Made by a program: the position numbers and the translations under genes
Shown: in pieces, positions 1 to 30,268 of the stretch
Layout: each line of letters begins with the position of its first letter
Position numbering within the stretch: position 1 is the stretch's first letter
The notes under the pieces: generated by a model
Database searches by the model: none
Told to the model about the DNA's origin: nothing
The model's input: only the letters and a program-made list of their open reading frames with translations
DNA from: an uncultured Succinivibrio sp.
GTDB lineage: Bacteria; Pseudomonadota; Gammaproteobacteria; Enterobacterales; Succinivibrionaceae
Assembly (NCBI GenBank): GCA_934218695.1
Contig: CAKQDA010000016.1
Location: 1 to 40,962 of the forward strand
Length of the DNA: 40,962 bases
Direction: 5' to 3'

Positions 1-548
1 GGAATGTATCTAGTGTAACTGACATGAGTGCAATGTTCAAAGACGCAATATTATTTAACCAGCCTATCTACAATTGGGATGTTTCCAATGTTACAGATAT
101 GAGTGCAATGTTCAAGGGGGCCGCATCATTTAACCAGCCAATTGGATATTGGAATGTTTCTAGTGTTACTAATATGTTTGCTTTATTTTATCGAGCAAAA
201 TCTTTTAATCAGTCACTTGAAAATTGGAATGTATCTAGTGTAACTGACATGAGTGCAATGTTCAAAGACGCAATATTATTTAACCAGCCTATCTACAATT
301 GGAATGTTTCTAATGTTACCGATATGAGCGAAATGTTTTGTGGGGCAATATCTTTTAACCAACCTTTAGAAAATTGGGATGTTTCCAATGTTAAAAATAT
401 GAAGGAAATGTTCAAAGGAGCTACTTCATTCAATCAGCCAATAGAAAATTGGAACGCAGCGAATGTTGTTGATATGCGAGGAATGTTATATGACGCTAAA
501 TCTTTTAAACAGAAAATTCCTAACTGGAATATTTCGTATAATTACAAC
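1..548 (+). repeat. Tandem 75-bp coding repeats, with a 77-bp exact copy
   Basis: Seven in-frame 75-bp units run from 24 to 548, with the end of an earlier unit before them. Bases 1-77 are identical to 226-302, an offset of exactly three units (225 bp), while neighbouring units differ at many positions. The first mismatch is base 78 against 303. This points to a recent three-unit duplication or gene conversion. Confidence 0.9.
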
Positions 549-620
549 GCAAAAGAGATGCTAAATATCGTCCGTATGAATTTAAGTGAAATTGCAAGTA
601 CATTAAAAAATGGTTCATAA
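1..620 (+). CDS. BspA-like DUF285 repeat surface protein, 3' fragment
   Basis: The reading frame is open from the first base of the window, so this is the C-terminal part of a longer gene. It encodes seven consecutive 25-residue repeats with the pattern M-x-x-M-F-x-x-A-x-x-F-N-Q-x-x-x-x-W-[ND]-V-S-x-V-x-[DN], the DUF285 (BspA-type leucine-rich-like) repeat. The last repeat degenerates (K for N, I for V), followed by about 23 non-repeat residues and a stop. Family members are generally surface or secreted proteins of host-associated bacteria, often implicated in adhesion. The N-terminus and any signal peptide lie outside the window, so export is inference. No anchoring motif is visible at the C-terminus. 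Confidence 0.85.
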   Translation, partial: NVSSVTDMSAMFKDAILFNQPIYNWDVSNVTDMSAMFKGAASFNQPIGYWNVSSVTNMFALFYRAKSFNQSLENWNVSSVTDMSAMFKDAILFNQPIYNWNVSNVTDMSEMFCGAISFNQPLENWDVSNVKNMKEMFKGATSFNQPIENWNAANVVDMRGMLYDAKSFKQKIPNWNISYNYNAKEMLNIVRMNLSEIASTLKNGS

Positions 621-676: not shown

Positions 677-701
677 AAAATAATGCCGGCATAAGCCGGC
701 A
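677..701 (-). terminator. Intrinsic terminator of the solute-binding protein gene
   Basis: On the minus strand TGCCGGC-TTAT-GCCGGCA forms a perfect 7-bp GC-rich stem (684-701), followed by TTATTTT. It lies about 25 bp past the stop of the minus-strand gene that ends at 725. Confidence 0.65.
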
Positions 702-724
702 CATTATGGAGATGATGAATCTGA

Positions 725-1855
725 TTAACCTTTGGTTCTCTTTGCTTCTACCATGATGTCGTGTGCTTTATCATAGTCAGGAACAATATCGTAAGCACGT
801 GAACGTGACATTTCTTCCTCTAATGAATCCCACTGAATTGCATCTAACTCATCTGATGTAAACAGATCAAGGCACTTCTTGTTACCCATCTGAGCTACAG
901 GGTTAAAGGTACCTTCTGCAAATGCTACGGTATGAGCAACTTCAGGATCCTGTACGTGCTTTAAGAAATCCTCAGCTAAAGGTGAGTGAACAGGGTTATT
1001 TACAACAGAGGTTACCTCAACCCACATTAACGCATTCTCAAGAGGAGAGATTGCTCTAATATTATCTAAGCCTTCAGCTCTTGCTAAAGATGCTGTATAG
1101 GTACCACCAGAAATGTAAGCATCAATGTCACCATTTACCAGAGCCTGGTTTACTGCAGCAATATCACCTACGAACTTGGCATTGCCAAAGATCCTCTTGC
1201 ATGTTTTTTCAAAAGAGGCCATTTCATCTGCTGTATGTTCCTTATAAGGATCAATTCCCGCAATTGTGAACATATGTGCCACGTTCCAGTCATCAGCCTC
1301 ATTGATGGCGTACTTTCCACTCAGACTGTCATCTGCCCAGAGTTTCCATCCTGTCTTTTCAGCTGTCTCTCTTGAGATCTTGTCGGTATTTACTACGAAG
1401 TTGTAAGGCCCGAATCGCTGCACCATACCAAGCAGTTTGGTTCCGTCCTCGCTCATAGCCCAGCTGTATGGGTATTTAAAGGTAGGCAGCATACTGTCAA
1501 AGTATGGCGCAAAGACCTTTTCATCTAGGGGTGTAATAAGACCTTCAGGGAAAAGAACTTTTCTTGCCCATGGGTTGTTAACGTTGATTAAATCCCAGAT
1601 CTTGGTCTCACCGGCACGCAGCTTATTTACCATGGTAGGATCATTAGTTGCAGATTCTGCCTTAACTGATGCCTCGGTCAGTTTTCTGTATGGATCAAGT
1701 ACATCAGCACTGTTATAGCCTTCCCAGCACAGAATATTCAATTCCTTATCTCTTTCACCTGCAAATGCCTTAGATGACAGAACTGCAGGAGCACAGGCAG
1801 CAGTAGCGCATGCCCCCATCATTTTTAACATAGAACGGCGTGTTAACTCAGTCAT
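725..1855 (-). CDS. Tat-exported PotD-like ABC solute-binding protein
   Basis: A 376-residue periplasmic binding protein that resembles the spermidine/putrescine (PotD/PotF) class. The mature protein opens with an N-I-L-C-W-E-G-Y strand typical of that group. The N-terminus is a twin-arginine signal: TRRSMLK at residues 5-11, a hydrophobic segment, and an AFA|G cleavage site near residue 32. I chose the ATG at 1855 because TGGAGGTC precedes it and the Tat motif follows directly; the frame is open further upstream but without a ribosome site. No permease or ATPase gene is nearby, so it must use a transporter encoded elsewhere. It is divergent from the kinase gene at 2147, which suggests an amino-alcohol or polyamine-like ligand (inference). 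Confidence 0.8.
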   Translation of the reverse strand: MTELTRRSMLKMMGACATAACAPAVLSSKAFAGERDKELNILCWEGYNSADVLDPYRKLTEASVKAESATNDPTMVNKLRAGETKIWDLINVNNPWARKVLFPEGLITPLDEKVFAPYFDSMLPTFKYPYSWAMSEDGTKLLGMVQRFGPYNFVVNTDKISRETAEKTGWKLWADDSLSGKYAINEADDWNVAHMFTIAGIDPYKEHTADEMASFEKTCKRIFGNAKFVGDIAAVNQALVNGDIDAYISGGTYTASLARAEGLDNIRAISPLENALMWVEVTSVVNNPVHSPLAEDFLKHVQDPEVAHTVAFAEGTFNPVAQMGNKKCLDLFTSDELDAIQWDSLEEEMSRSRAYDIVPDYDKAHDIMVEAKRTKG

Positions 1856-2002
1856 AATGACCTCCAGATGTGTAACTTTATTCATAAAATGTTGAAGTTG
1901 TATATAACAATACATAAAAAATGTGGTGAATACAATAAAAAAATGTAAAAACAAAAATATTTTTGTTAGATATTGACTGACAAGCAACAAAGAATTATTT
2001 TT

Positions 2003-2018
2003 ATGTTAAAAGTACAAC
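2003..2018. promoter_or_regulatory. Operator-like site between binding protein and kinase genes
   Basis: ATGTTAAAAGTACAAC differs at two positions from ATGTTGTAAGTACAAC at 6285-6300, upstream of the phospho-lyase gene. The ideal palindrome would be ATGTTGTAAGTACAACAT, reminiscent of GntR/HutC-type operators. The same AT-rich divergent gap (1856-2146) holds further TTGT/ACAA dyads, for example TTGTATATAACAA at 1898-1910. No regulator gene is in the window. Confidence 0.5.
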
Positions 2019-2146
2019 ATATTGTGTTGAAAAGTTCCAATATGCTTTGAAGTTCAAATCAGGTTCAACATTTAATCGCGGATACGGTAGAAACATGCTT
2101 TAAAGCCTGCTCCTCCTGTATACAAGCTTTATAGAAAGGTGACATT

Positions 2147-3166
2147 ATGAGCAAAGAATACGAGCCACAAACAGTAAAAGAACTTACTGACATGGTAAAC
2201 AGTTCCTTAAAACTGTGGGGAATGAGCGATAAGGCTTATGCAAAACTAATCAATCTGTCAGAGAATGCCACTTTCTGTGCAACTGATCCTAAAGAGGGCC
2301 CAGATAAGGGGCGATCACTAATCTTAAGAGTTCAGCGTAACGACTATTCAACCAAAGATGCAATTAGATCAGAGCTTGCATGGGTTAAAGCTCTTGCAGA
2401 TGATCATGTCATTTCCACTGCAAGGCCGGTTCCCCTGTCAACAGGAGAGTATGTGGCAATGACCATGACAGCATCAGGAGATCACAGAATGATAGTTGCC
2501 TTTGAAAAGCTCAACGGAAGCGAGCCTTCATTAAAGCTATCAGGACTTGATCACTGGTTTGAAGTTGTAGGTGAGATCAGTGCCAAAATGCATAATCACG
2601 CCAGACAGTGGAAAAGACCAGACTGGTTTACAAGGCGAGTCTGGGATTTTGACGGCATTATCGGAGAGCACGCCTACTGGGGTAACTGGAAGAACAGTAA
2701 CGGTCTTGATGATTCTGGAAAAATAACCGTAGGCCGGACAGTTGATGTGGTCAAAACACTCATGGATGATTATGGAGAGAATAATTACAACTTTGGAGTG
2801 ATCCACTCTGACTGCAGAGCTACAAACCTGCTTGTAGACGGTAGTGAACTTCATGTAATCGATTTTGATGATATGGGATTTGGCTGGTATCTGTTCGACT
2901 TTGCTGCAGCTTTAAGCTTTATGGAGCAGTCTGAGGATGCAGTGAAACTTGCCAGAGCGTGGATTAAAGGTTATGAAAAGGTAACTAAGCTTTCTGATTA
3001 TGAAAAAGATCTTCTGCCAACCCTGTCGATTATGCGTCGTATTGAACTTATGTCCTGGTGTACAAGCCACAGTGAGGTTCCATTTGCCGCTAAGGAAGGC
3101 CTTCAAGTTACAAAGGATACTGTAAGACTGTGTGAATCATATCTTGCAGGAAGATATTTAAAGTAG
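2147..3166 (+). CDS. APH-fold small-molecule kinase (phosphotransferase)
   Basis: A 339-residue protein of the aminoglycoside phosphotransferase/choline-kinase fold. The Brenner motif is intact: H220-S-D222-x4-N227, then the metal-binding D-F-D-D at 239-242 and G-F-G-W. The N-terminal lobe has L-S-E-N-A-T-F and an I-L-R-V-Q-R strand, as in SrkA/homoserine-kinase-II-like members. AAAGGTGA precedes the ATG. The gene ends 13 bp before the dehydrogenase gene, so they are probably cotranscribed. Bacterial and animal relatives paired with class-III phospho-lyases phosphorylate amino alcohols such as 5-hydroxylysine; that pairing recurs here (lyase at 4890-6221). The fold is clear and the substrate is inferred from context. 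Confidence 0.75.
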   Translation: MSKEYEPQTVKELTDMVNSSLKLWGMSDKAYAKLINLSENATFCATDPKEGPDKGRSLILRVQRNDYSTKDAIRSELAWVKALADDHVISTARPVPLSTGEYVAMTMTASGDHRMIVAFEKLNGSEPSLKLSGLDHWFEVVGEISAKMHNHARQWKRPDWFTRRVWDFDGIIGEHAYWGNWKNSNGLDDSGKITVGRTVDVVKTLMDDYGENNYNFGVIHSDCRATNLLVDGSELHVIDFDDMGFGWYLFDFAAALSFMEQSEDAVKLARAWIKGYEKVTKLSDYEKDLLPTLSIMRRIELMSWCTSHSEVPFAAKEGLQVTKDTVRLCESYLAGRYLK

Positions 3167-3179
3167 GGAGAATTTTATT

Positions 3180-3992
3180 ATGTATGACAGCTTAAAGGGC
3201 AGTACTGCAATTGTGACTGGTGCCGGATCTGGTATAGGCAGGGCAATGGCTATAAGCTTTGCCAAATCAGGATGTAAGGTTGTATGTGTAGCCAGACGCA
3301 AGGGGACACTTGACGAGGTTGTAGATGAAATAAAAAAATCAGGTGGTGAGGCTGTTGCCTTTGCAGGAGATGTAACCTCCTATGAGCAAATGGAGGCTAT
3401 GGCCAAAACTGCTATTTATACCTACGGAAAGATTGATATCCTACTGTCAAACGCTGGTGTGATCCCTCAGGTGCCGTTATCGGAGATGACAGATGAAGAC
3501 TTTGATCTAGTAATGGATATCAATGTCAAAGGTATGTTTCATTCTATAAAGGCAGTAATGCCTCAGATGAAGAAACAGAAATACGGCAGAATAATTTTAA
3601 CATCATCAATTACAGGTCCTATCACAGGCTATCCTGGATGGGCTGTATATGGAGCAAGCAAGGCCGCTCAGTTAGGTTTTATGAGAACAGCTGCCATGGA
3701 ATTAGCTCCATATGGAATTACCGTAAATGCTGTATCTCCAGGTAATGTTATGACTGAAGGACTGAAATCCTTAGGACAGAACTATGTGGATATTATGGAA
3801 AAAGCAGTACCCGTAGGAAGACTTGGCACAGGATTTGACATTGCCAATGCTGCTTTATTTCTGGCTCAAAAAGAATCATGGTACGTAAACGGGCATAATC
3901 TTATCATTGACGGTGGTCAGATTTTACCTGAATCATCTGGTGCCTTAGATGAAATGCGCAAGCTTTACGAAAGTGAAATGGCAAAATCATAA
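3180..3992 (+). CDS. Short-chain dehydrogenase/reductase, UcpA/FabG-like
   Basis: A 270-residue classical SDR. It has the T-G-A-G-S-G-I-G cofactor loop (residues 13-20), the N-A-G motif (91-93), serines at 142-143 and the Y157-x3-K161 catalytic pair. The C-terminal I-I-D-G-G-x-x-L-P-E resembles UcpA. An A or R after the second strand (V-A-R-R) hints at NADP(H) preference, but this is weak. GGGAGA precedes the ATG. It sits just downstream of the kinase gene and may oxidise or reduce the carbonyl released by the phospho-lyase, or the amino alcohol itself. The substrate cannot be read from sequence. Confidence 0.8.
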   Translation: MYDSLKGSTAIVTGAGSGIGRAMAISFAKSGCKVVCVARRKGTLDEVVDEIKKSGGEAVAFAGDVTSYEQMEAMAKTAIYTYGKIDILLSNAGVIPQVPLSEMTDEDFDLVMDINVKGMFHSIKAVMPQMKKQKYGRIILTSSITGPITGYPGWAVYGASKAAQLGFMRTAAMELAPYGITVNAVSPGNVMTEGLKSLGQNYVDIMEKAVPVGRLGTGFDIANAALFLAQKESWYVNGHNLIIDGGQILPESSGALDEMRKLYESEMAKS

Positions 3993-4031
3993 CTATCTTT
4001 TTTTTCTCAACCGTTCATTTTTCTTATTTTG

Positions 4032-4059
4032 GGCGTTATCGTCAGATAACGCCGTTTTT
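4032..4059 (+). terminator. Intrinsic terminator after the dehydrogenase gene
   Basis: A perfect 9-bp stem, GGCGTTATC-GTCA-GATAACGCC, followed by GTTTTTG, 40 bp after the SDR stop. It ends the kinase-SDR transcript. Confidence 0.85.
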
Positions 4060-4274
4060 GGCTCCTGAATATAGAGCTGTCACAAAGACTTTTTGAGAAC
4101 CAGAACCACAGAACCGTTCTTTTTTTCATCTTATAGTTGAATTTTAAATGTAGAAAGTAGAGTGTCATTTACCGCTTAGTAAAGGCATGGTACTTAGTAA
4201 GAATATGTGGTCGTAAGAGCGTTATTAAAAACAAATGAATAATGTATGGATCATAAATAATCACTTCAGTCTTT

Positions 4275-4803
4275 TTACAGTGACAGCACAGGTCTTGCCG
4301 CAAAGGCAATTCCATAGGCATAAATACTCATAACTGATCTGTTTGTCATCATAGGTTCAGCGTAGTTTTTCTCTTCTATCTGAGAAAGCGCATTCTCACT
4401 TGCAGTTACAAAGTCAGAGCCTACAGGTGAAGATTTAATCTCAACAATGGCTACCTTTCTGCTACCGGCATCCTTAAAGAAAATATCAGGATATCCGTCT
4501 CCAGATTCAGTATTTTAATGATATCCTCCAAGGTTACCTTTATGTAATCTGATGACCTTTAAAAGGTAAAAATTTCGTTTCCTTCTTCTCTCTTAGACAA
4601 AGATGATATCTGTCGTACCAGTTAAAAATGTTAAATTTTGCAGCACCATTAGGAAATGCATTTTATGTGGTCAGATCATAATAGATATCAGAGGCAGTAT
4701 TCTATTTTGTATATTCCATATATAGCGGATTATGTATAAATAAAGCTAAATCATGATGATTGCAGTTTGATGGGAGATATTGTTTCAGGTGTTGCTGAAA
4801 CAT
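4275..4803 (-). pseudogene. Decayed AAA-ATPase-like/PD-(D/E)XK (DUF1703) remnant
   Basis: Read on the minus strand, this stretch gives pieces of the C-terminal half of the AAA-ATPase-like/DUF1703 family. The clearest piece is the end: D-G-Y-P-D-I-F-F-K-D, then V-A-I-V-E-I-K (the PD-(D/E)XK core), E-K-N-Y-A-E-P and I-Y-A-Y-G-I-A-F, with a natural stop at 4275-4277. Upstream there are in-frame stops (one just before N-T-E-S-G, others near T-T and Y-T-K) and a frameshift after N-W-Y-D-R-Y-H. The ATPase half is missing. An apparently intact relative starts at 40649. It separates the two arms of the putative amino-alcohol cluster. Confidence 0.8.
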
Positions 4804-4834
4804 AAGAGGCTGTTTACAAGATCACAAAGATATA

Positions 4835-4863
4835 AAAGGCACGAAATCATCTTTCATGCCTTT
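4835..4863 (-). terminator. Terminator of the phospho-lyase gene
   Basis: The minus strand forms a 12-bp stem with one G-T wobble (AAAGGCATGAAA / TTTCGTGCCTTT), a 5-base loop, then T-ATATC. It lies 27 bp past the stop of the gene ending at 4890. The T-run is short. Confidence 0.6.
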
Positions 4864-4889
4864 ATAAATTGATGGTTGGTTAACAGTTT

Positions 4890-6221
4890 TTATTTGCCAA
4901 TCTCTTTTAAGGATTTTGTAATTGCATCTATAAAGAAATCGGCGTCTTTTCTGTAGAATCGCAGTGGAGGTCTGATCTTGAGAATGTTGCCATAAGGACC
5001 TGCAGCACCAATGAGAACGTTGTTATAGCGTAATCTGTTGATAAGCAGAGTGGCGCTTTCTGAATCAACTCCTTTGGTATCAGGATCTTTTACAACTTCA
5101 AGCCCTGTAAATAAGCCTGCACCTCTTACATCACCAAGACATGGATGATCTTTTGAAAGTTCTCTCAGACCTGCCCTTAAATAGTCACCGGCATCCTTTG
5201 CGTTGCTGATTAAATCATCTTCCTGTAAAACTTCCAGTACAGCAGTACCTGCTGCCGCAGCGCCAGGTGTACCGCCAAAGGTGTTAAAGTAACCCGTGCC
5301 CTTTAGGGCATCAATGATTTCACTTCTGGTTACCATAGCCGCCATAGGATAACCGTTACCCATAGGTTTACCCATGGTTACAATATCAGGTACCACATCG
5401 TGTCTCATGAACCCCCACATCTTACCGGTTCTTCCAAAGCCTGGCTGAACCTCATCGGCAATATAGACACCGCCGTGTTTATGAACCACATCGATGGCTT
5501 TTTTAATAAATCCCTGAGGATCTGCAAATACACCATCAGATGAAAAGATATCATCAAAAAGAATTGCTGCAAATTTAATTCCATGAGCTTCAAGATCTTC
5601 AATTGCCTTTTCAACATCACTTGCAAACCTGTCTGCAAGAACATCAGGGGCAATTCTGTAGGTGTCAGGAGCAGGTACAGTTCTTACAAAGTCAGCTGTC
5701 ACCTTACCCTTTGTGCTCGATGGAGATACAAAGGTGGTCAGATAGGAGTTGCCGTGATAGGCTCCGGAAGTAACAATTACACCTTTACCACCTGTTAGGT
5801 AAAAAGCTGCTCGCAAAGCAAGATCGTTACTTTCAGATCCTGTACAGGTCATAGCAATCTTGTCTAAAGGTGCAGGAAAGGTCTTTAATAATTTTTCCGC
5901 ATAATCGTCAACTACCTTGTTCAGATATCTTGTATGGGTGTTGACAACAGAGAGCTGTTTACCTACATATTCTGCTACACGGGGATGACCGTGACCGATA
6001 CAGGCCACATTGTTATAGCAGTCTAAAAACCTGGTTCCTCGGTTGTCAAACAGATAACAGCCTTCACCTTTTACCACTTCAATGGGTTCTTTAAAAAAGA
6101 GAACCGAAGCAGAGCCAAACACATCTAAACGACGCTTTGTTTCATCTTTTATGTCTTCAGGGAGAGAGCCTACATCGCTCTGATCAAAGGCATTCATTGA
6201 AAGAATTGATTTAATTGCCAT
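4890..6221 (-). CDS. Class-III PLP enzyme, amino-alcohol phosphate phospho-lyase-like
   Basis: A 443-residue class-III aminotransferase-fold protein. It shows T-G-S-E-S-N-D (127-133), Y-H-G (155-157), A-D-E-V-Q with Asp256 for the pyridoxal ring nitrogen, and K285 in M-G-K-P-M-G-N-G-Y-P as Schiff-base lysine. D-C-Y-N-N-V-A-x-I-G-H-G-H-P, V-P-D-I-V-T-M-G-K-P and N-I-L-K-I-R-P-P closely match my recollection of animal ETNPPL/PHYKPL, which split ethanolamine phosphate or 5-phosphohydroxylysine into aldehyde, ammonia and phosphate. An ordinary aminotransferase role remains possible. The ATG at 6221 is preceded by AGGAG at 5-base spacing; the frame is open upstream. With the kinase at 2147 it would form a two-step pathway. 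Confidence 0.75.
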   Translation of the reverse strand: MAIKSILSMNAFDQSDVGSLPEDIKDETKRRLDVFGSASVLFFKEPIEVVKGEGCYLFDNRGTRFLDCYNNVACIGHGHPRVAEYVGKQLSVVNTHTRYLNKVVDDYAEKLLKTFPAPLDKIAMTCTGSESNDLALRAAFYLTGGKGVIVTSGAYHGNSYLTTFVSPSSTKGKVTADFVRTVPAPDTYRIAPDVLADRFASDVEKAIEDLEAHGIKFAAILFDDIFSSDGVFADPQGFIKKAIDVVHKHGGVYIADEVQPGFGRTGKMWGFMRHDVVPDIVTMGKPMGNGYPMAAMVTRSEIIDALKGTGYFNTFGGTPGAAAAGTAVLEVLQEDDLISNAKDAGDYLRAGLRELSKDHPCLGDVRGAGLFTGLEVVKDPDTKGVDSESATLLINRLRYNNVLIGAAGPYGNILKIRPPLRFYRKDADFFIDAITKSLKEIGK

Positions 6222-6284
6222 AAGAACTCCTATCATATTCAGAAAGCCAGTTTGTTGTTTTGTTATGTTTAAAGTATCACATAA

Positions 6285-6340
6285 ATGTTGTAAGTACAAC
6301 TAAAATACAACAAAAGATATTAAAAATGTTGTAATTGCAA
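6285..6340. promoter_or_regulatory. Two operator-like sites upstream of the phospho-lyase gene
   Basis: ATGTTGTAAGTACAAC (6285-6300) contains the perfect dyad GTTGTA-AG-TACAAC. A second copy, ATGTTGTAATTGCAA (6326-6340), matches the first at 13 of 15 positions. The first also matches the site at 2003-2018 at 14 of 16. The shared motif suggests one repressor for both arms of the cluster. Confidence 0.55.
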
Positions 6341-6394
6341 AGTAAATGCTCATAAATAATGTGGAAGTGCACACTAATGTCAGAAACAGAGCAA

Positions 6395-6415
6395 CATGAT
6401 CTGTTTCAGATCATG
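6395..6415 (-). terminator. Hairpin, probable tatC terminator
   Basis: CATGATCTG-AAA-CAGATCATG on the minus strand is a perfect 9-bp stem with a 3-base loop, 49 bp past the tatC stop. It is followed by TTGCTCTGTTTC, so the T tract is poor. Confidence 0.45.
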
Positions 6416-6463
6416 CTGTTCTGAATAGTGATGTAAATAAGAACAGAATGCAGGCTTTAACGG

Positions 6464-7234
6464 TTATTTTGCGATCTGAGCGGAAAGTTCTGTATTTTCT
6501 CTTTTTCTGAAGAGAAGGCTCGAGAAAATAACTCCAATCTCGTAAAGAATGATAACTGGTAAAGCCAGCATCAGCTGAGAGGTGACATCAGGAGGTGTAA
6601 GAACAGCTGCAATTAAGAATGCAATAACGATTAGATAGCGGCGAAATTTTTTGAGTTTTGTTGGAGTTACAACATTAAGTGCGCTTAACAGAATGACTGC
6701 TACCGGTACTTCAAAGGTAATTCCAAAAGCTAAAAACATATGCAGAACAAAACTGATATACGAATCGATATCTGGCGCAAAAGAGATAGTTTCAGGTGAA
6801 AAGGATGCAATAAACTTAAACAGAAAACCGAAAACAATAAAGTAACAGTAGGCAACTCCAAGTATAAACATGAAAACCGAAGAAATAATAAAAGGGATCA
6901 CCACTTTCTTTTCATGTTTATATAAGCCAGGAGAGAAAAATTCCCAGATCTGAAACAGCGTAAAGGGAAAACTGATACAAAATGCAGAGAACAGAAGCAC
7001 TTTTAATGGCCCCATTACAGGAGCAATTACACTTACAGAAAGCAGCTGTGTACCCTGAGGCAGCGCACTTAACAGAGGTTTTGACAGATAATCAAAAAGA
7101 AGTTGCATGAAAGGCGCAAGGGCTGCAGTGCAGATGACTATTCCTGCAATAATCAGTATTACTCTTTTTCGCAGTTCCAGAAGATGCTCTGTTACTGTCA
7201 TGCTCTGAAGTTTTTCTGTTGTATCTTCTTTCAT
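6464..7234 (-). CDS. tatC: Sec-independent translocase subunit TatC
   Basis: A 256-residue polytopic inner-membrane protein with six predicted membrane segments. It is the receptor that, with TatB, binds twin-arginine signal peptides. The N-terminus has the family-typical E-H-L-L-E-L-R-K-R, with F-S-P-G-L-Y-K-H-E-K in the first periplasmic/cytoplasmic loop region and F-G-I-T-F-E-V-P in mid-protein. The frame also opens at a GTG at 7243; I prefer the ATG at 7234 because AAGGTGA lies ahead of it. Third gene of tatA-tatB-tatC on the minus strand, 54 bp after tatB. The length is normal for the family. Confidence 0.95.
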   Translation of the reverse strand: MKEDTTEKLQSMTVTEHLLELRKRVILIIAGIVICTAALAPFMQLLFDYLSKPLLSALPQGTQLLSVSVIAPVMGPLKVLLFSAFCISFPFTLFQIWEFFSPGLYKHEKKVVIPFIISSVFMFILGVAYCYFIVFGFLFKFIASFSPETISFAPDIDSYISFVLHMFLAFGITFEVPVAVILLSALNVVTPTKLKKFRRYLIVIAFLIAAVLTPPDVTSQLMLALPVIILYEIGVIFSSLLFRKRENTELSAQIAK

Positions 7235-7288
7235 ATAGGTCACCTTGTAAAAGGTCTCAGAAAGGCTGCAAAATCATCAGAATATCCG

Positions 7289-7738
7289 TTATTGTGCAAT
7301 ATTCTCTTTGAGTTTGGCAATTTCCTGTTCAAGCTTTTCAACTCTTTCTGCTAACTGCAGGCTGTTGCTGTTATTTTTCTTTTCATCTGTCTGTACCCTG
7401 TCTTTAGGCACTTCATTTCTGTCTGATGATTTCTCATCTTTTTCCCTGAAATCATCAGCAGTCACCGTCCACTGCCTTTTTCCGTTGTGATGAGAGCTGT
7501 CAGCTGCAGAGGGAGATATTCTGTTTACAGTATCGTGAAAGTCATTTTTTCTGATTACAGAAACTTCCTGTCTTATTTCATCTAGCTGTAACTGGGTTTT
7601 GACAGAATTGAGGTAATTCCTCGCTTTTGCAAAAAAGTGTCCCAGGCTGAACATAAGTTTAAAGGTCCTGACAGGTCCTAAGACTATCAGCGCAATGACG
7701 ACGATTATTATGAGTTCGTCAAAACCAATAAAGTCCAT
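7289..7738 (-). CDS. tatB: Sec-independent translocase subunit TatB
   Basis: 149 residues. A short N-terminal periplasmic tail and one membrane helix (about residues 7-21) are followed by the V-L-G-P hinge and an amphipathic helix. The charged C-terminal half is rich in K, E and D and ends in a likely coiled coil (A-E-R-V-E-K-L-E-Q-E-I-A-K-L-K). TatB forms the substrate-recognition complex with TatC. The start codon overlaps the tatA stop by one base (TAATG), so translation is probably coupled. I separate it from TatA by the V-L-G-P hinge, the longer tail and its position in the operon. Confidence 0.9.
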   Translation of the reverse strand: MDFIGFDELIIIVVIALIVLGPVRTFKLMFSLGHFFAKARNYLNSVKTQLQLDEIRQEVSVIRKNDFHDTVNRISPSAADSSHHNGKRQWTVTADDFREKDEKSSDRNEVPKDRVQTDEKKNNSNSLQLAERVEKLEQEIAKLKENIAQ

Positions 7739-7932
7739 TATTTTTTCTCAATTGAACTTTCTTTTGCTACAGGTTTGTCTTCAAACTCTTCCTGTGCTTC
7801 CTTCATACCTTCTTTAAAACCTTTGACAGCACCGCCAAGATCTTTGCCAATGTTCTTCAGTTTTGATGTGCCAAACACCAAAGCTACGACAACTAAAAGG
7901 ATCAGCCAGTGCCAGATTGATAGTGCGCCCAT
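7738..7932 (-). CDS. tatA: Sec-independent translocase subunit TatA
   Basis: 64 residues: a membrane helix from about residue 8 to 20, then the F-G-T-S-K-L hinge, an amphipathic helix ([14 protein letters not shown]) and an acidic tail. TatA polymerises to form the transport pore. AAGGAG precedes the ATG at good spacing. It is the first gene of the operon. A 7-bp inverted repeat (AACTAAA/TTTAGTT, 7952-7970) lies just upstream of the ribosome site and may affect mRNA folding. The Tat substrate encoded at 725-1855 lies nearby. Confidence 0.93.
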
Positions 7933-8304
7933 AGTAAAGCTCCTTAAGATTAACTAAAGAATGTTTAGTTCAGTATCATTTTTTAGTGTTTCACTTTCAA
8001 CATAATTCAAAGTAAATGTGGTAAATGGCAACACGATGGAGCAGTTTTGAGATTAAAAGCTGAAGATGGTGCAATATTGCACTAATGAGGATCCGTATAA
8101 CTGGAAATATTAAGAAATTACAGATTTGTCAGGAGCCAAATGCTCATAATTGAGAATTGAAGAGTGCAAATTACAGAAATTTGAGGATTTTATGGATCAA
8201 ACGAAGGTATAACCCGTTTGTCTCTATATTATTTGGGACGCTGACAGCAGAAAGTTTCTGCTGCCAGCGCTGTGATCACCTAATGAAGAAATACTTTTTT
8301 TAAT
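7933..8304. other. 372-bp intergenic region between prmA and tatA, with hairpins
   Basis: No gene is seen. The right part holds two hairpins downstream of prmA. The stronger is CGCTGACAGCAGAAA/TTTCTGCTGCCAGCG (8239-8269), two 15-base arms with a single A-C mismatch and almost no spacer, with no T-run on either side. The weaker is CAAACG/CGTTTG with an inner GGT/ACC (8198-8220). The left part must contain the tatA promoter; I could not pick a convincing -35/-10 pair. Confidence 0.6.
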
Positions 8305-24646: not shown

Positions 24647-26251
24647 CTATTTTGAGGACAGCTCACTTGCAATTTCCTCTAGACTTCTGCCCTTAGTTTC
24701 AGGCATCATGCCAAGACACCAGATTAACTGCAGGATCATCATGAAGCAGAAGAATCCGAACATGTAGCCTGCATCAAAGTGTGCAATTGCAATTGGGAAT
24801 ATCAGAGTAAGACCTGCTGCAAAGATCCAGTGGGTAAAGCTTCCTAATGACTGACCTGCAGCACGCTGATCGTTAGGGAAGATTTCAGAAATAAATACCC
24901 AGATGATAGTGCCTGATCCGATGGCATGAGCTGCGATAAATACAACCATGCAGATTAAAACGGTCATACTTACGTTGCCAAGTGAGCCTGAAGCCTCATG
25001 CTTTAAGTTAAGAGCAATATCACGAACTTCCTGAACTGACTCACCGTCAAATACAACACTGGTTCCTGAATACTTAGAAGGAGAAGTTGCATCAGTTAAG
25101 GCCAGTTTTGCTGCATCATATGCTGCAACAGCCTTTTCATGATCTTCAGCTGTGAAGTAAACCTCACCGTTGTCCATACGCATCAGCTGATCTGCTGTTG
25201 ATGCTGTATCAACAGCTGATGACACAACTTTTAACTCATCATAGTGGAAGAATGCATAGGTACATACTGAAAGACTTGCGATGTAGCCGACACAACCGAT
25301 GATAAGAAGGGTCTTTCTGCCTAAAACATCGATAAGTCTGATACCTATGAAGGTTGCAATCAGGTTTGTAAAGCCAAGTGCGATAGATGCAGCTACAGGA
25401 TCTTCCATACCTGCAAGACCTAACAGTCTTGGAGCAAAGTACAGAATAATATTGATACCTGACAGCTGGTTGAAGGCTGCAATCAGGAAAGCAAACAGAA
25501 TTGGATAGCGCAGACGCTTGGTAAAGAATCTGGTTCTGCTCTGCTTTGACTTACCCTCTGATGCTGCACTTTCCTTTACTGACTGAACCAGCTCATCTAA
25601 CTCACTGTCAGTCATTTTAGGGTTGATTAAAGAGAATACGTGTCTGCCCTGTGCTTCATTTTTGGCATCTACAATTAACCAGCGTGGTGACTCAGGTAAT
25701 GAGAAGCACATCAGAGTGTAGATTAAAGCTGGAACCAGCTGAATACCCAGCATCCATCTCCATGCAGTCTCTTCAGGAGCTATGTGTACAATGATGTAGT
25801 TAGAGAAGAATGCCATCAGGATACCGAACACGATATTAAACTGGAACAGACCAGTCAGCTTGCCTCTGTCTCCTGCAGGAGAAATCTCAGAGATAAACAG
25901 AGGAGCTGCAATTGTGGAAATACCAATACCGATACCGCCTAAGAATCTGAAGACAAAGAATGATGATACGTCCCAGGCTACTGCTGAACCTATGGCACCT
26001 ACTACGAACAGAACACCGTTGGCAACCAGAGTTTTCTTTCTGCCAAATTTTGCGGCAGGGAAGCTTCCTATAAGAGAGCCTAATACAGTACCCCAAAGTG
26101 CTGCTGAGATAGCAAGTCCATGCATGGAGCCACTTAATGACCACAACTGCTGAATTTTGCTTTCAGCTCCGGAAATAACAACGGTATCAAAACCGAAGAG
26201 AAATCCTGCCAGGGCAGAGGTGATAGCCCAGAGTAATAATTTCTTGTTCAT
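24647..26251 (-). CDS. MFS sugar porter with a large periplasmic insert
   Basis: A 534-residue proton:sugar symporter-like protein of the XylE/GalP/GLUT group, with twelve membrane segments. Family signatures are G-R-K-K (70-73), R-F-L-G-G-I-G-I-G, P-E-S-P-R-W-L (186-192), Q-L-S-G-I-N (262-267), a second G-R-K (311-313) and P-E-T-K-G-R-S-L-E-E. Between segments 9 and 10 (about 337-426) there is a roughly 90-residue hydrophilic insert, predicted periplasmic, which XylE and GalP lack. The ATG at 26251 has AGGGAT upstream; an in-frame ATG at 26272 does not. It is divergent from a LacI regulator and PfkB kinase, so the likely substrate is a monosaccharide such as fructose. Confidence 0.88.
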   Translation of the reverse strand: MNKKLLLWAITSALAGFLFGFDTVVISGAESKIQQLWSLSGSMHGLAISAALWGTVLGSLIGSFPAAKFGRKKTLVANGVLFVVGAIGSAVAWDVSSFFVFRFLGGIGIGISTIAAPLFISEISPAGDRGKLTGLFQFNIVFGILMAFFSNYIIVHIAPEETAWRWMLGIQLVPALIYTLMCFSLPESPRWLIVDAKNEAQGRHVFSLINPKMTDSELDELVQSVKESAASEGKSKQSRTRFFTKRLRYPILFAFLIAAFNQLSGINIILYFAPRLLGLAGMEDPVAASIALGFTNLIATFIGIRLIDVLGRKTLLIIGCVGYIASLSVCTYAFFHYDELKVVSSAVDTASTADQLMRMDNGEVYFTAEDHEKAVAAYDAAKLALTDATSPSKYSGTSVVFDGESVQEVRDIALNLKHEASGSLGNVSMTVLICMVVFIAAHAIGSGTIIWVFISEIFPNDQRAAGQSLGSFTHWIFAAGLTLIFPIAIAHFDAGYMFGFFCFMMILQLIWCLGMMPETKGRSLEEIASELSSK

Positions 26252-26412
26252 GACAATAATCCCTAAAAACATAGTTCGATATTCGATTATCAGACGATCT
26301 GAATTTACATATAGAAATTTCTGCTAGGTAAATTTAGAAAATCCGATTTCTGTCTGAGGTAAATAATGTCACAGCAGTAAAAAATAAAATATACAATGCA
26401 TTCACAAAAAAG

Positions 26413-26430
26413 TATGCAAAATTTTGCATA
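26413..26430. promoter_or_regulatory. LacI-type operator candidate 1
   Basis: TATGCAAAATTTTGCATA is a perfect 18-bp palindrome, 162 bp upstream of the porter start. The even, spacer-free symmetry suits LacI-family operators. Confidence 0.65.
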
Positions 26431-26483
26431 TAATAAAAATCAAGGTCATTTTTATGCTTTCCTTTTTTTATGAATGAAAAATA

Positions 26484-26497
26484 TGCAAAACTTTGTA
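26484..26497. promoter_or_regulatory. LacI-type operator candidate 2
   Basis: TGCAAAACTTTGTA matches the 14-bp core of candidate 1 (TGCAAAATTTTGCA) at 12 of 14 positions; its centre is 69 bp from that of candidate 1. Confidence 0.5.
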
Positions 26498-26626
26498 AAT
26501 TTTGATCATGGAATTTGTTACAAAATCTTTTGAAAATTCAAAGCATAATCATGCTTATATGAATAACTATTTCAAATGAAAACTGAAAAGCTGATATTTG
26601 AAAATTGCAAAGTTAAATTCGGTTTA

Positions 26627-26640
26627 TGCAAAAACTTGCA
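26627..26640. promoter_or_regulatory. LacI-type operator candidate 3
   Basis: TGCAAAAACTTGCA keeps both outer half-sites (TGCAA/TTGCA) and matches the candidate-1 core at 12 of 14 positions. It lies 184 bp before the lacI start, so it could serve autoregulation or DNA looping. Confidence 0.5.
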
Positions 26641-26823
26641 ATAAAAATTTTGAAAATTGCCAAAAAGCAAAAAATTTTATTCCACAACAAAAATTTTCAT
26701 ACGTATAATTCAAAAAAGTTAAGTTCATGAGAAATTCGTATGAATTTACTGTAAAAGAAAAATTTCTTTTAACTGTCATGAATTTTGTTATGTTTTTTTT
26801 GAAAGTGTTGTGTACAGATTGTT

Positions 26824-27843
26824 ATGGCTAATATTACTGATATAGCAAAAGAGCTGGGTATTGCACCTTCAACGGTCTCAAGAGCTTTGAAAAAACCAGA
26901 GCTCGTTTCTCTGGAAACCAGACATAAGGTTCTGCAGATGGCAGAAAAACTCGGATATCTTCAGAAATTAAGAGACGATGCAACGGCCGCGACTGCCACC
27001 AACCTTATAGGCGTTATTGTCGCTGATCTTACAAATTCCTTTTCAAACCAGATTGTAAAAGCTGTTCACGACACATTAGAGAACAGTGGATACTCTGCAA
27101 TTGTCGGATGCAATTATGAGCAGAGCAGCATTGAAAACCGTCTTTTAAAGCAGTGGGCATCCTTAAATCTGAAAGGACTTATCATCATGCCTACAGCAAG
27201 ATTTTCAAAAACTATAAACTCTGTTGAGGCTAATTATCCGATAGTTCTTGTAGACAGAAACTGTGAGGATCTTAGTTTCGACAGTGTTATCGAAGACAAC
27301 CGCTATGGTGCCTGTCAGGCTATTGAGCATCTGAGGGAATTAGGTCATGAAAGGATTGTCTTTATCTCTGGGGCAAGACGTGTCTATACCTTCAACGAAC
27401 GCTGTCTTGGGGCTGAGGGGGCGACCACGGCTACAGGAAGATCGGCAAATGTGCAGATAGAAGAAATTGATGCTGAGTCCTATGACGAATTATTCATTGG
27501 CGCTTTTGAAAAGACCAATATTCTGATGATGAAAAACAGTGCTTTAAGACCTACTGCTATTGTAGGTGCCAACAACGCCATTACAGCAGGTGTTCTGTAT
27601 GCCCTGAATTTAAAGAATTTTAAGATACCGAATGATATTTCAGTGGTGTCTTATGGTGACAGTGACTGGTGCAGGTTCTATCCAACACCAATTACTTCAA
27701 TGTGCCAGCCGGTAGATGAGATGGGACGCGAGGCAGCCTCAATTCTCTTGGACAGAATAAAGGGAAAGAAAGGTGATCCTGAAAAGATCTGCCTTAAGTC
27801 TATGTTGTTAAGAAGAGCATCTAGTTCAGAACTTCAGATGTAA
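26824..27843 (+). CDS. LacI-family transcriptional regulator
   Basis: 339 residues. The N-terminal helix-turn-helix is canonical (I-T-D-I-A-K-E-L-G-I-A-P-S-T-V-S-R-A-L, residues 4-22), followed by the hinge and a periplasmic-binding-protein-like effector domain (I-G-V-I-V-A-D-L-T-N-S-F through S-V-V-S-Y-G-D-S-D). No clear ribosome site precedes the ATG. The kinase gene starts 33 bp downstream on the same strand and the sugar porter is divergent, so it most likely represses the local sugar uptake genes through the palindromes in the gap and responds to that sugar or its phosphate. Confidence 0.9.
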   Translation: MANITDIAKELGIAPSTVSRALKKPELVSLETRHKVLQMAEKLGYLQKLRDDATAATATNLIGVIVADLTNSFSNQIVKAVHDTLENSGYSAIVGCNYEQSSIENRLLKQWASLNLKGLIIMPTARFSKTINSVEANYPIVLVDRNCEDLSFDSVIEDNRYGACQAIEHLRELGHERIVFISGARRVYTFNERCLGAEGATTATGRSANVQIEEIDAESYDELFIGAFEKTNILMMKNSALRPTAIVGANNAITAGVLYALNLKNFKIPNDISVVSYGDSDWCRFYPTPITSMCQPVDEMGREAASILLDRIKGKKGDPEKICLKSMLLRRASSSELQM

Positions 27844-27876
27844 CCTATCAGTCAGTTCAACTTTGTGAGAGTTATC

Positions 27877-28776
27877 ATGTTAGATTTTTCAAAATTTCAG
27901 GGAAAGAGGATCAAGTGTGCAGGTTTGGGCGAAGTTTTATTTGACGTCCTGCCTACAGGAGCAAAAATTGGCGGAGCACCTGCCAACTTCGCATTCCACT
28001 GCAAACAGCAGGGACTTGATGCCATGGCAATCAGTTCTGTAGGTAAGGATGCACTTGGCTTTAAGGCCCGTGATTTACTTGCCTGTAATTTTCTGCCTGC
28101 ACTGCTTTTAGAGAATGACAAGCAGACTGGAGCTGTGAATGTCGATTTAAGTGAAGATGGTGTACCTACCTATACTTTCCTTGAAGATACAGCGTATGAC
28201 AATATTCCTTTAACACCATTACTTCTGGAGACAGCAAAGAGTCTTGATATGGTGTGCTTTGGCTCATTAGCTCAGAGAAACCGCCCTTCCCACGGAACCA
28301 TCATGGCTTTTCTTGATGTAATGAAAGAGGATTCCATCAAGGTTTTCGATGTGAATTTACGTCGTGAATACTATTCAAAGAACGTTATTGAAGAATCATT
28401 AAAGCGTTCTGATGTCTTTAAGTGCAATGAAGATGAACTCCCAGTTTTAAGCGAGATTGCAGGTCTTAAAGAGGCAACTTCCGACAGATATTTTGAGTAT
28501 CTGCAAAACAGAGGTATAGAGTGTTTTATCTTTACAGAAGGCGCAAAGGAAAGCACTATCTATCTGAATAATGAAAAATCGGTTCTACCTACACCAAAAG
28601 TTGAAAATATTGTGGATACTGTAGGTGCCGGAGATTCTTTTACAGCAACAGTCATCAGTTCCCTGATGAAAGGAGAATCTCTTGAAAAGGCTCATGAAAA
28701 AGCTGTAAACATCGCAGCTTATGTCTGCACTCAGAAAGGTGCAATGCCTGAGATCCCAAACAACTTTTTAAAGTAG
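27877..28776 (+). CDS. PfkB-family sugar kinase, fructokinase-like
   Basis: 299 residues of the ribokinase/PfkB fold. The N-terminus has G-L-G-E-V-L-F-D-V-L-P-T-G and the substrate-lid G-G-A-P-A-N-F-A; the C-terminal signature D-T-V-G-A-G-D-S-F (247-255) carries the catalytic base D253. The G-G-A-P-A-N-x-A pattern is typical of bacterial fructokinases. The ATG at 27877 has GTGAGAG upstream; an in-frame GTG at 27865 is less likely. With the porter it would import and phosphorylate one sugar, probably fructose; another ketose is possible. Confidence 0.85.
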   Translation: MLDFSKFQGKRIKCAGLGEVLFDVLPTGAKIGGAPANFAFHCKQQGLDAMAISSVGKDALGFKARDLLACNFLPALLLENDKQTGAVNVDLSEDGVPTYTFLEDTAYDNIPLTPLLLETAKSLDMVCFGSLAQRNRPSHGTIMAFLDVMKEDSIKVFDVNLRREYYSKNVIEESLKRSDVFKCNEDELPVLSEIAGLKEATSDRYFEYLQNRGIECFIFTEGAKESTIYLNNEKSVLPTPKVENIVDTVGAGDSFTATVISSLMKGESLEKAHEKAVNIAAYVCTQKGAMPEIPNNFLK

Positions 28777-28884
28777 AAAATCTGCTTGTTAAGATAAAAT
28801 GCAGCCACGGTTACAGTCTTGGCTTTATTTTCTGAAAACAGACAGTTCTAACTATAAAAAATTTCCTCATTTTCTTAGTATTTG

Positions 28885-28918
28885 CCTCCTTCACTCTCTC
28901 TGAAGGAGGATTTTTTTT
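28885..28918 (+). terminator. Intrinsic terminator of the lacI-kinase unit
   Basis: CCTCCTTCA-CTCTCTC-TGAAGGAGG is a perfect 9-bp stem followed by A and eight T residues. It lies 108 bp past the kinase stop. A weaker AGCCA/TGGCT hairpin with a TTTATTTT tail occurs earlier, at 28803-28832. Confidence 0.88.
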
Positions 28919-29065
28919 GATCTTGAGTGCATTTTTGTAACTTTCATTATAAATTCTGCAAATTTATCGTAAAATCAAAGCGATCATGGGATTTCATGTC
29001 CATCTGACAACAGATAAAAATTATTAAAATAACAAAACAGACTCTCTAATCTAATGGAGTAAAAA

Positions 29066-30268
29066 ATGTCGCCTCTGACAAAACTTACAGTTGTTTTTAC
29101 TGTAATGTGCTGTTCTCTGAGCTCAGGTAGAGCGCTTGAGCTTACAGTATGGGAAGATTATGGTAAGGGATCCGGTCTGGCTCAGGCTATAAGTGCCTTT
29201 ACTAATGAAACCGGAATCGATGTAAAAGTTGAAGAGAATAACTATATTTATGCTTTGCAGAAACTGCGCCTTGACGGTCCTGTAGGAAAGGGACCTGATC
29301 TGATTCTGCTGCCAAATGATCAGCTTGGTGTTGCCGCAAAGGAAGGTATGATCGATCCTGTATTTTTTTCAGATGATGACAGAGCTCTGTATCCTGAAAA
29401 TGTTATTGATGCTGTTTCAATCGATCAGGTTCAGTATTCAGTACCAAAGAGTGTTGAAACCATGGCTGTTTTCTACAATAAAAAGTATCTTTCAAAACCA
29501 TTTGACACTCTGGACTCCTATTTTAAATACACTCAACTTGAAAAAGAAAACGGCCGAAACGGGTTTGCAGCCAAATTCGATGATCTTTTCTACTGTATGC
29601 CACTTCTTTCATCCTATGGCGTCTATGTGTTCGGCAAAAACAAATTGGGTGGGGTTGTCATCAGTGATGTGGGGCTTGACAGTCCAGAGGCAATTAAAGC
29701 AGTTTCAAAAATAAAGGAATATTATGATAAAAAGCTGATCCCTCCTTCAATCAACGGCGTGAACGGAGTTCAGAACTTGATTGATATGTTCTGTCAGGGA
29801 AGACTTGCGGCTACTATTTTAGGTTCATGGAATGTCGGATCTGCCTTAAAAAGTCACGTTGATTTTGCCATAGCTCCTCTACCTGTAAACAGTGAGGGCA
29901 AACAGATGTCTGGTTTTTTAGGTGTTAGAGGATTTGCTGTTTCGCACTGGGCAAAAGACTATGATGCGGCTGTAAAACTTGCAAAATACTTAACTATGGA
30001 CAAGTACTCAAAACCAAGATTTAAAATCACAGGAGAGATCCCTGCATCTTTAAAACTGCTCGATGATCGGGATATACTCAATGACAAATATGCCAATGCC
30101 TTTATTCTGCAGGCAAAGATTGCACCTGAAATGCCTTCTGTAAGTGAAATGAATAAATTCTGGTTACCTTTTTCAAATCAGCTTCTGCAGATTTTCAACG
30201 GAAAGATTTCCGTAGAGGATGGTCTGCATGAAGTGGTTTCAAGTGTAAAGAGCGAATATCAGAACTAA
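29066..30268 (+). CDS. Orphan MalE-like sugar-binding protein
   Basis: A 400-residue extracellular solute-binding protein of the maltose-binding type. After a signal peptide (residues 1-23, cut near G-R-A|L) comes E-L-T-V-W-E-D-Y, then G-K-G-P-D-L-I-L-L-P-N-D-Q-L-G, A-A-T-I-L-G-S-W-N and P-L-P-V-N, the framework of MalE-like proteins. GGAGT precedes the ATG. No permease or ATPase gene lies nearby, so it must work with a distant maltose/maltodextrin transporter or act as a sensor. It is flanked by terminators and is its own transcription unit. Confidence 0.85.
   Translation: MSPLTKLTVVFTVMCCSLSSGRALELTVWEDYGKGSGLAQAISAFTNETGIDVKVEENNYIYALQKLRLDGPVGKGPDLILLPNDQLGVAAKEGMIDPVFFSDDDRALYPENVIDAVSIDQVQYSVPKSVETMAVFYNKKYLSKPFDTLDSYFKYTQLEKENGRNGFAAKFDDLFYCMPLLSSYGVYVFGKNKLGGVVISDVGLDSPEAIKAVSKIKEYYDKKLIPPSINGVNGVQNLIDMFCQGRLAATILGSWNVGSALKSHVDFAIAPLPVNSEGKQMSGFLGVRGFAVSHWAKDYDAAVKLAKYLTMDKYSKPRFKITGEIPASLKLLDDRDILNDKYANAFILQAKIAPEMPSVSEMNKFWLPFSNQLLQIFNGKISVEDGLHEVVSSVKSEYQN

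What the first reader, a model, noticed from the sequence alone, without database searches (positions are those of the whole stretch)
725..6221. Putative amino-alcohol kinase/phospho-lyase catabolic cluster
A PotD-like binding protein, an APH-fold kinase with complete H-x-D-x4-N, an SDR and a class-III PLP enzyme that resembles ETNPPL/PHYKPL sit together. Known chemistry (ethanolamine phosphate and 5-phosphohydroxylysine phospho-lyases) predicts import, phosphorylation, then release of ammonia, phosphate and an aldehyde that the SDR could process. This would be a cofactor-B12-free route for amino alcohols in a gut gammaproteobacterium. The actual substrate is unknown.
Basis: partly seen in the sequence, partly recalled or inferred. 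Interest (0 to 1): 0.7.

Follow-up and report, generated by a model that had tools for sequence, protein, structure and literature searches.

The report
Shell-free aminopropanol breakdown gene cluster
A gut bacterium carries a compact set of genes that most likely takes up aminoacetone or aminopropanol and strips off its nitrogen without vitamin B12 or a protein shell; the route is of a known kind, but here it lies next to genes for a protein-export machine that may serve it.

Summary
In detail: SBP (725-1855, -), APH-fold kinase (2147-3166, +), SDR (3180-3992, +) and class III PLP enzyme (4890-6221, -) are intact. The kinase's nearest solved relative is the microcompartment-associated aminopropanol kinase 6ef6; the SDR's is the aminopropanol/aminoacetone dehydrogenase 6ci8/6ci9, so it probably acts on aminoacetone, not on the product aldehyde. 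The PLP enzyme groups with phospho-lyases 6tor and 5g4i. Best reading: a B12-free, shell-free aminoacetone/1-amino-2-propanol pathway in a Succinivibrionaceae relative. In 56 genomes of the nearest relative's family, kinase, PLP enzyme and SBP occur in the same 4. This kind is known, so it is a variant. New here: tatABC beside the PLP gene; tatC occurs in 8 of 56 genomes, including those 4, where it lies within about 1.1 kb of the PLP gene; the SBP has a twin-arginine signal. TWCAACAT boxes precede SBP/kinase and PLP. Two of the 4 genomes show no aldehyde dehydrogenase besides ProA, so the aldehyde may be reduced. No activity was measured.

The parts
725..1855 (-). PotD/PotF-like solute-binding protein (376 aa) with twin-arginine signal TRRSMLK; presumed amine importer subunit
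   Evidence: R6 R7 invariant in 14 rows; 15 solved putrescine/spermidine-binding chains match the 14-row profile, only 22-32 bits; TIGR01409 14.2 bits, below the 16.7 cut-off
683..702 (-). terminator-like hairpin just after the SBP gene (SBP probably transcribed alone)
   Evidence: consensus match only; 7 found in 7,801 bases against 5.3 in shuffles
1856..2146 (.). divergent promoter region SBP/kinase with TWCAACAT boxes at 1889 (-), 2013 (+), 2064 (+)
   Evidence: 3 exact, 0.12 expected in shuffles of this stretch
2147..3166 (+). APH-fold kinase, probable (S)-1-amino-2-propanol kinase (AptK-like)
3180..3992 (+). SDR, probable aminoacetone reductase / 1-amino-2-propanol dehydrogenase (AptD-like); 13 bp after the kinase gene, same strand
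4032..4053 (+). terminator-like hairpin after the SDR gene
   Evidence: consensus match only
4835..4863 (-). terminator-like hairpin after the PLP enzyme gene
   Evidence: consensus match only
4890..6221 (-). class III PLP enzyme, probable amino-alcohol-phosphate phospho-lyase; TMGKPMGNG around K285 (PLP lysine by homology, recalled)
6222..6463 (-). region ahead of the PLP gene: TWCAACAT boxes at 6285 and 6326 (-); terminator-like hairpin 6392-6418 after tatC
   Evidence: (2 exact, 0.13 expected)
6464..7243 (-). TatC
   Evidence: PF00902 217 bits; TIGR00945 198 bits, over cut-off
7289..7738 (-). TatB-like subunit (149 aa)
   Evidence: (TIGR01410 47.9 bits, below the 56.5 cut-off), position between tatA and tatC
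7738..7932 (-). TatA (64 aa)
   Evidence: NF002813 107.6 bits, over cut-off

Best explanation
A shell-free, B12-free module for using aminoacetone and/or (S)-1-amino-2-propanol, perhaps mainly as nitrogen source. Inferred steps: (1) a PotD-like binding protein, probably exported folded through the Tat system coded next to the cluster, feeds an ABC importer; (2) the SDR reduces aminoacetone with NAD(P)H to (S)-1-amino-2-propanol (or runs backwards); (3) the APH-fold kinase makes the O-phosphate with ATP; (4) the PLP phospho-lyase releases phosphate and ammonia and leaves propanal; (5) propanal leaves the pathway through host enzymes, perhaps Fe-type alcohol dehydrogenases giving propanol, since the nearest relative shows no aldehyde dehydrogenase besides ProA. 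Shown here: gene content, kinship of each enzyme to named solved enzymes, co-occurrence, linkage, shared upstream boxes, absence of detectable BMC shell and aldehyde dehydrogenase genes in the window and of BMC genes in four relatives. Not shown: any activity, the transported compound, Tat export, the fate of the aldehyde, and the rest of the window's own genome, which is not held.
Confidence: 0.64

Rival explanations
1. Same chemistry, but ethanolamine is the main substrate: the kinase makes phosphoethanolamine, the lyase gives acetaldehyde, ammonia and phosphate; the SDR does something else.
For: 6tor is human ethanolamine-phosphate phospho-lyase; a related kinase-lyase pair in Chimaeribacter lies beside an annotated ethanolamine permease with no SDR of this type; EutB in 0 of 56 family genomes, so no B12 route competes.
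Confidence: 0.16
2. Same chemistry on another amino alcohol or amino ketone (hydroxylated polyamine piece, 2-amino-alcohol, 5-hydroxylysine), for which the PotD-like SBP is the clue.
For: The SBP profile matches only putrescine/spermidine binders (15 chains); three SBP paralogues in L001 and two kinases plus three SBPs in L002 suggest several ligands; an isochorismatase-family hydrolase joins the cluster in Agrobacterium.
Against: Kinase and SDR both point to the C3 compounds; SBP scores are weak.
Confidence: 0.13
3. The PLP enzyme is an ordinary omega-aminotransferase acting on the amino alcohol, as proposed for the Aut microcompartment in PMC6620236 (abstract and passages read), and the kinase acts on a later product.
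For: Pfam and NCBIfam mostly say class III aminotransferase; that paper's published scenario.
Against: Tree and scores place it with phospho-lyases; the R. jostii microcompartment enzyme itself scores 320 and 298 bits to phospho-lyases against 168 for the next.
Confidence: 0.05
4. The genes are neighbours without common function.
For: Probably four separate transcripts, with terminator-like hairpins between them.
Against: Co-occurrence in the same 4 of 56 genomes and linkage across phyla.
Confidence: 0.02

Closest known systems
Aminoacetone/1-amino-2-propanol utilisation microcompartment (RMM, also Aut/AAUM) of Mycobacterium and Rhodococcus
   Same: Related kinase (6ef6), related dehydrogenase (6ci8/6ci9), PLP enzyme of the same lyase clade (R. 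jostii pRHL2, 44% identity).
   Different: No BMC shell or aldehyde dehydrogenase gene found in the window, no shell gene in four relatives; SBP-dependent importer in the relatives, where PMC6620236 (passages) describes a GabP-family permease in Rhodococcus. The ABC importer and DeoR regulator are not a mark of shell-free loci: shell loci L075 and L080 carry them too.
Shell-free aminopropanol kinase plus candidate phospho-lyase pairs (Mallette and Kimber 2018; paper not held, content recalled), here seen e.g. in Agrobacterium fabrum pAt ATU_RS25115-25070
   Same: Kinase, lyase, SDR, SBP, ABC and DeoR genes together; 42% (kinase), 55% (PLP) and 66% (SBP) identity.
   Different: Gene order and strands; no tat genes annotated in the two fetched Agrobacterium stretches; in the window no ABC or DeoR gene found.
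Ethanolamine-phosphate phospho-lyase ETNPPL (6tor) and Arthrobacter phospholyase (5g4i)
   Same: Same clade of class III PLP enzymes, 42% and 40% identity.
   Different: Part of a catabolic cluster with an aminopropanol-type kinase; substrate likely one carbon longer than phosphoethanolamine.
Tat operons coupled to a substrate gene (phoD with tatCd, efeB/ywbN with tatCy in Bacilli; PMC3827258, passages read)
   Same: tat genes near the gene of a presumed substrate.
   Different: Here the presumed substrate is an importer's binding protein, and the nearest gene is a cytosolic catabolic enzyme; not demonstrated.

Membership tests
(S)-1-amino-2-propanol kinase (AptK type) | Closest to the solved aminopropanol kinase, with family residues kept | tested here: met
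(S)-1-amino-2-propanol kinase (AptK type) | Phosphorylates (S)-1-amino-2-propanol | not testable with these tools
   no assay
1-amino-2-propanol/aminoacetone dehydrogenase (AptD type) | Closest to 6ci8/6ci9 in sequence, with the block TSSITGPITGYPGW | tested here: met
   fold scores nearly tied with other SDRs
1-amino-2-propanol/aminoacetone dehydrogenase (AptD type) | Interconverts aminoacetone and 1-amino-2-propanol | not testable with these tools
   no assay
Class III PLP phospho-lyase | Falls in one clade with ETNPPL and 5g4i, apart from transaminase and racemase outgroups | tested here: met
   (100/98); PHYKPL sequence not available, outgroups few and on long branches
Class III PLP phospho-lyase | Releases ammonia and phosphate | not testable with these tools
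   no assay
RMM/Aut microcompartment | BMC shell genes | tested here: not met
   three R. jostii shell proteins: no tblastn hit in the window at E 0.01, while they hit control loci L075 and L080; PF00936 in 0 of 4 relatives; the rest of the window's genome is not held
RMM/Aut microcompartment | Aldehyde dehydrogenase in the locus | tested here: not met
   three aldehyde dehydrogenases as queries: no hit in the window; relatives: only ProA in G001 and G063, ProA plus one ExaC-like enzyme in G002 and G096
B12-dependent ethanolamine utilisation (Eut) | EutB | tested here: not met
   0 of 56 family genomes; control rings in E. coli; the window's own genome is not held
Tat substrate | (S/T)RRxFLK-like signal in the SBP | tested here: met
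   TRRSMLK (M for F); RR invariant in 14 rows; consensus as in the abstract beginning of PMC3383694 (listing)
Tat substrate | TIGR01409 over its cut-off | tested here: not met
   14.2 against 16.7 bits; of the three SBPs scanned, only the Pseudomonas one (L035) is over it, 17.7

The most novel reading that the evidence does not exclude
In this family, where tatC was found in only 8 of 56 genomes held, the aminopropanol module travels with its own tatABC operon whose main job is to export the module's binding protein, and the module works as a nitrogen-scavenging electron sink: aminoacetone is reduced, phosphorylated and cleaved, and the propanal is reduced to propanol instead of being oxidised in a shell as proposed for the microcompartment version.
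Probability: 0.27. Interest if true: 0.6.

Novelty: new variant of a known kind. Interest (0 to 1): 0.42.

Why it matters
It ties a poorly annotated cluster (source names seen here: FabG, aspartate aminotransferase, Ser/Thr protein kinase) to one definite, assayable pathway, suggests that the shell is optional for it, and adds sequence evidence that the microcompartment 'aminotransferase' is a phospho-lyase, against the lactaldehyde scenario of PMC6620236. If the tat link is real, it gives a simple case of an export system carried along with a nutrient-uptake module, and gut Succinivibrionaceae become a test bed for aminoacetone use in the gut.

Tried and rejected
The paper by Mallette and Kimber on the kinase: not held; only titles of their papers in other papers' reference lists were seen, their content is recalled. 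Idea that the shell version uses a different lyase: first suspected because many loci with BMC shells carry another class III enzyme ('c8', 26-29% identity); withdrawn for the Rhodococcus RMM locus, whose enzyme is of the same clade as the window's, and kept only as a side note for the c8 loci. Endogenous aminoacetone from threonine: TIGR00692 over cut-off in 0 of 4 genomes; 3 of 4 have weaker matches, best 170 bits against a cut-off of 458. A dedicated TatC lineage: the five pathway-linked TatCs fall on one side of a branch, but support is weak (49/77, 50% of bootstrap trees). Exact TWCAACAT boxes in L002 (Succinatimonas): one of four promoters. Sigma-70-like promoters: no more than in shuffles (18 against 20.7). 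Paper searches listed no paper that I recognised as describing this cluster in Succinivibrionaceae or a tat operon tied to such an SBP (titles and abstract beginnings scanned; of the Tat papers one was opened, passages only).
Full report
WHAT IS THERE. Four intact genes match the finding. Pfam gives SBP_bac_8, APH, adh_short and Aminotran_3. NCBIfam names the SDR a FabG (NF004202, 362.7 bits, over its cut-off of 333) and gives no model over cut-off for kinase or PLP enzyme among the rows shown (best 25 of 70 for the PLP enzyme). The kinase and SDR genes are 13 bp apart on the + strand; SBP and PLP genes lie on the - strand. Terminator-like hairpins follow SBP, SDR and PLP genes, and one lies between tatC and the PLP gene (7 found against 5.3 in shuffles, so each alone is weak). 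The window therefore holds probably four transcripts: SBP, kinase-SDR, PLP, tatABC.

PLP ENZYME. 6tor (human ethanolamine-phosphate phospho-lyase) 342 bits, 5g4i (Arthrobacter phospholyase) 337, next a racemase 198. In a tree of 75 rows the window falls in a 57-row clade (100/98) with 6tor, 5g4i and the R. jostii pRHL2 microcompartment enzyme; putrescine aminotransferase, the racemase, 14 rows of another class III group (c8), a second Leisingera enzyme and the Tsukamurella enzyme, which stands beside a related kinase, lie outside. The tool warned of long branches meeting, and outgroups are few; PHYKPL was not available. Of 81 positions invariant in 49 type-A rows (16 short rows dropped), 6tor keeps 64, 5g4i 66, R. 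jostii 77, Tsukamurella 42, racemase 44, PatA 38, three c8 enzymes 35-39. PMC6620236 (abstract and passages) proposed that the microcompartment enzyme is an aminotransferase giving lactaldehyde; the R. jostii enzyme's 320 and 298 bits to phospho-lyases against 168 for the next speak for a phospho-lyase.

NEIGHBOURHOODS. Of these 80, 47 hold the lyase-type PLP enzyme, 14 another class III enzyme, 19 neither; of the 57 with at least 5 kb on both sides, 37 hold the lyase-type enzyme, 33 with SDR, 21 with SDR and SBP. In L001 (Succinivibrio) and in Agrobacterium fabrum pAt the SBP is followed by ABC ATPase and two permeases, and a DeoR regulator lies in the cluster; L002 (Succinatimonas) shows the ATPase and one permease, and part of the second, before its end. 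None of these four proteins of L001 has a tblastn hit in the window at E 0.01. I tested genomes of 50 of the 80 loci for shell genes: PF00936 in 10 of 50. Of the 50, 36 have the lyase-type enzyme near the kinase, 2 of them with shell genes in the genome (Thioalkalivibrio and Roseospira; not checked for nearness to the kinase); 13 have the other class III enzyme, 7 of them with shell genes; 1 (L069) has shell genes and no class III enzyme seen. Shell loci L075 and L080 also carry the ABC and DeoR genes.

CO-OCCURRENCE. In 56 genomes of the family of L001's genome (record named Succinivibrio): kinase in 4, PLP enzyme in the same 4, SBP in the same 4. For kinase against PLP the hypergeometric chance is 2.7e-6, relatedness not corrected. 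SecY, as a completeness control, is found in 51 of 56, so a few absences may be gaps in assemblies. EutB: 0 of 56. In the 4 genomes: BMC 0 of 4; aldehyde dehydrogenase family: G001 and G063 show only ProA, G002 and G096 ProA plus one ExaC-like enzyme; Fe-type alcohol dehydrogenases in 4 of 4; threonine dehydrogenase over cut-off 0 of 4. The window's own genome is not held; its nearest relative in this set (G001) shares 77% of kinase residues, and a protein 94% identical is known from 605 sequences without context (P0001).

TAT LINK. tatC, a TatB-like gene and tatA lie upstream of the PLP gene on the same strand. TatC is found in 8 of 56 family genomes; the 4 pathway genomes are among them, and in each a tatC lies near the PLP gene: within about 0.35 kb on the same strand in G001, G002 and G063, divergent and about 1.1 kb apart (tatA- and tatB-like frames between) in G096. 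In G063 it is the only tatC found, and the PLP start codon lies one base after the tatC stop; a DeoR-type gene 51% identical to that of L001 stands before tatA there. G001, G002 and G096 have a second tatC elsewhere, and 4 genomes have tatC without the pathway, so the link is not exclusive. The hypergeometric chance for 4 of 4 given 8 of 56 is 1.9e-4, relatedness not corrected, and this test was thought of after the genes were seen side by side. The SBP begins MTELTRRSMLK; RR is invariant in the 14 SBP rows, but TIGR01409 gives only 14.2 bits against a cut-off of 16.7. Tat export of the SBP is thus an inference. Tat genes beside a substrate gene are known in Bacilli (PMC3827258, passages).

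REGULATION. TWCAACAT occurs 10 times in the 40,962-base window, 5.0 expected, reached by 1 of 100 shuffles; 5 of the 10 lie in two stretches, 1856-2146 (3, expected 0.12) and 6222-6463 (2, expected 0.13). One more lies at 7996, ahead of tatA, in a stretch I had set as control (expected 0.09). The motif was chosen from the SBP/kinase regions of L001 and the window, so only other promoters are independent tests: window PLP 2, L001 PLP 1, L001 ATPase 2, L002 ATPase 1, L002 PLP 0; the G063 and G096 PLP loci have none, the G063 kinase/SBP gap has 1. Stretches without a box: window 3993-4889, L001 14010-14594, L001 6440-6667, and both L002 SBP/kinase gaps. A DeoR-type regulator is a candidate, unproven.

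VERDICT. The pathway kind is known, and from recall Mallette and Kimber already noted shell-free kinases with candidate phospho-lyases; so the cluster is a variant: shell-free, probably fed by an SBP-dependent importer, with tatABC beside it and perhaps a reductive end.

Noticed in passing
3-620 (+): Open frame of DUF285 (BspA-like) repeats, 235 bits to PF03382, where relative L001 has further SBP and ABC genes.
   Followed up: partly
4278-4475 (-): Decayed remnant of a PD-(D/E)XK nuclease-superfamily gene (PDDEXK_9, 26.4 bits, cut-off 25.5) between the SDR and PLP genes; L001 and L002 each have a different gene at this place (406 and 420 aa, not scanned).
   Followed up: partly
L053, L067, L068, L071, L075, L078, L080: Aminopropanol-type kinases near another class III PLP enzyme (26-29% to the window's; for the one searched, L068, best solved matches were 4ppm and putrescine aminotransferase), in genomes with BMC shell genes, some with an aldehyde dehydrogenase in the locus. 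Of 14 genomes searched with the window PLP enzyme (13 with this enzyme plus G042), 8 have no match of 40% identity or more; there this enzyme might replace the lyase.
   Followed up: partly
L098 (R. jostii pRHL2): Four microcompartment genes appear twice in a row with identical protein accessions.
   Followed up: no
L099, L100: Plasmid-borne kinase-lyase pairs without this SDR in Chimaeribacter (beside an annotated ethanolamine permease) and Acinetobacter ursingii (IS transposase genes in the stretch), each with an AraC-family regulator.
   Followed up: partly
L102: Leisingera plasmid: a PLP enzyme of the phospho-lyase clade followed directly by an annotated 'homoserine kinase' that keeps only 31 of 49 family residues.
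   Followed up: partly
L001 4136-7795; L002 2598-9014: Three SBP paralogues in L001 and three SBPs with two kinases in L002, which suggests more than one ligand.
   Followed up: no
24647-30268: Probable sugar-use group: sugar-porter-like protein, LacI-type regulator, sugar-kinase-like protein (named by eye from the translations) and an SBP_bac_8/SBP_bac_1 binding protein whose N-terminus has no twin-arginine pair.
   Followed up: no
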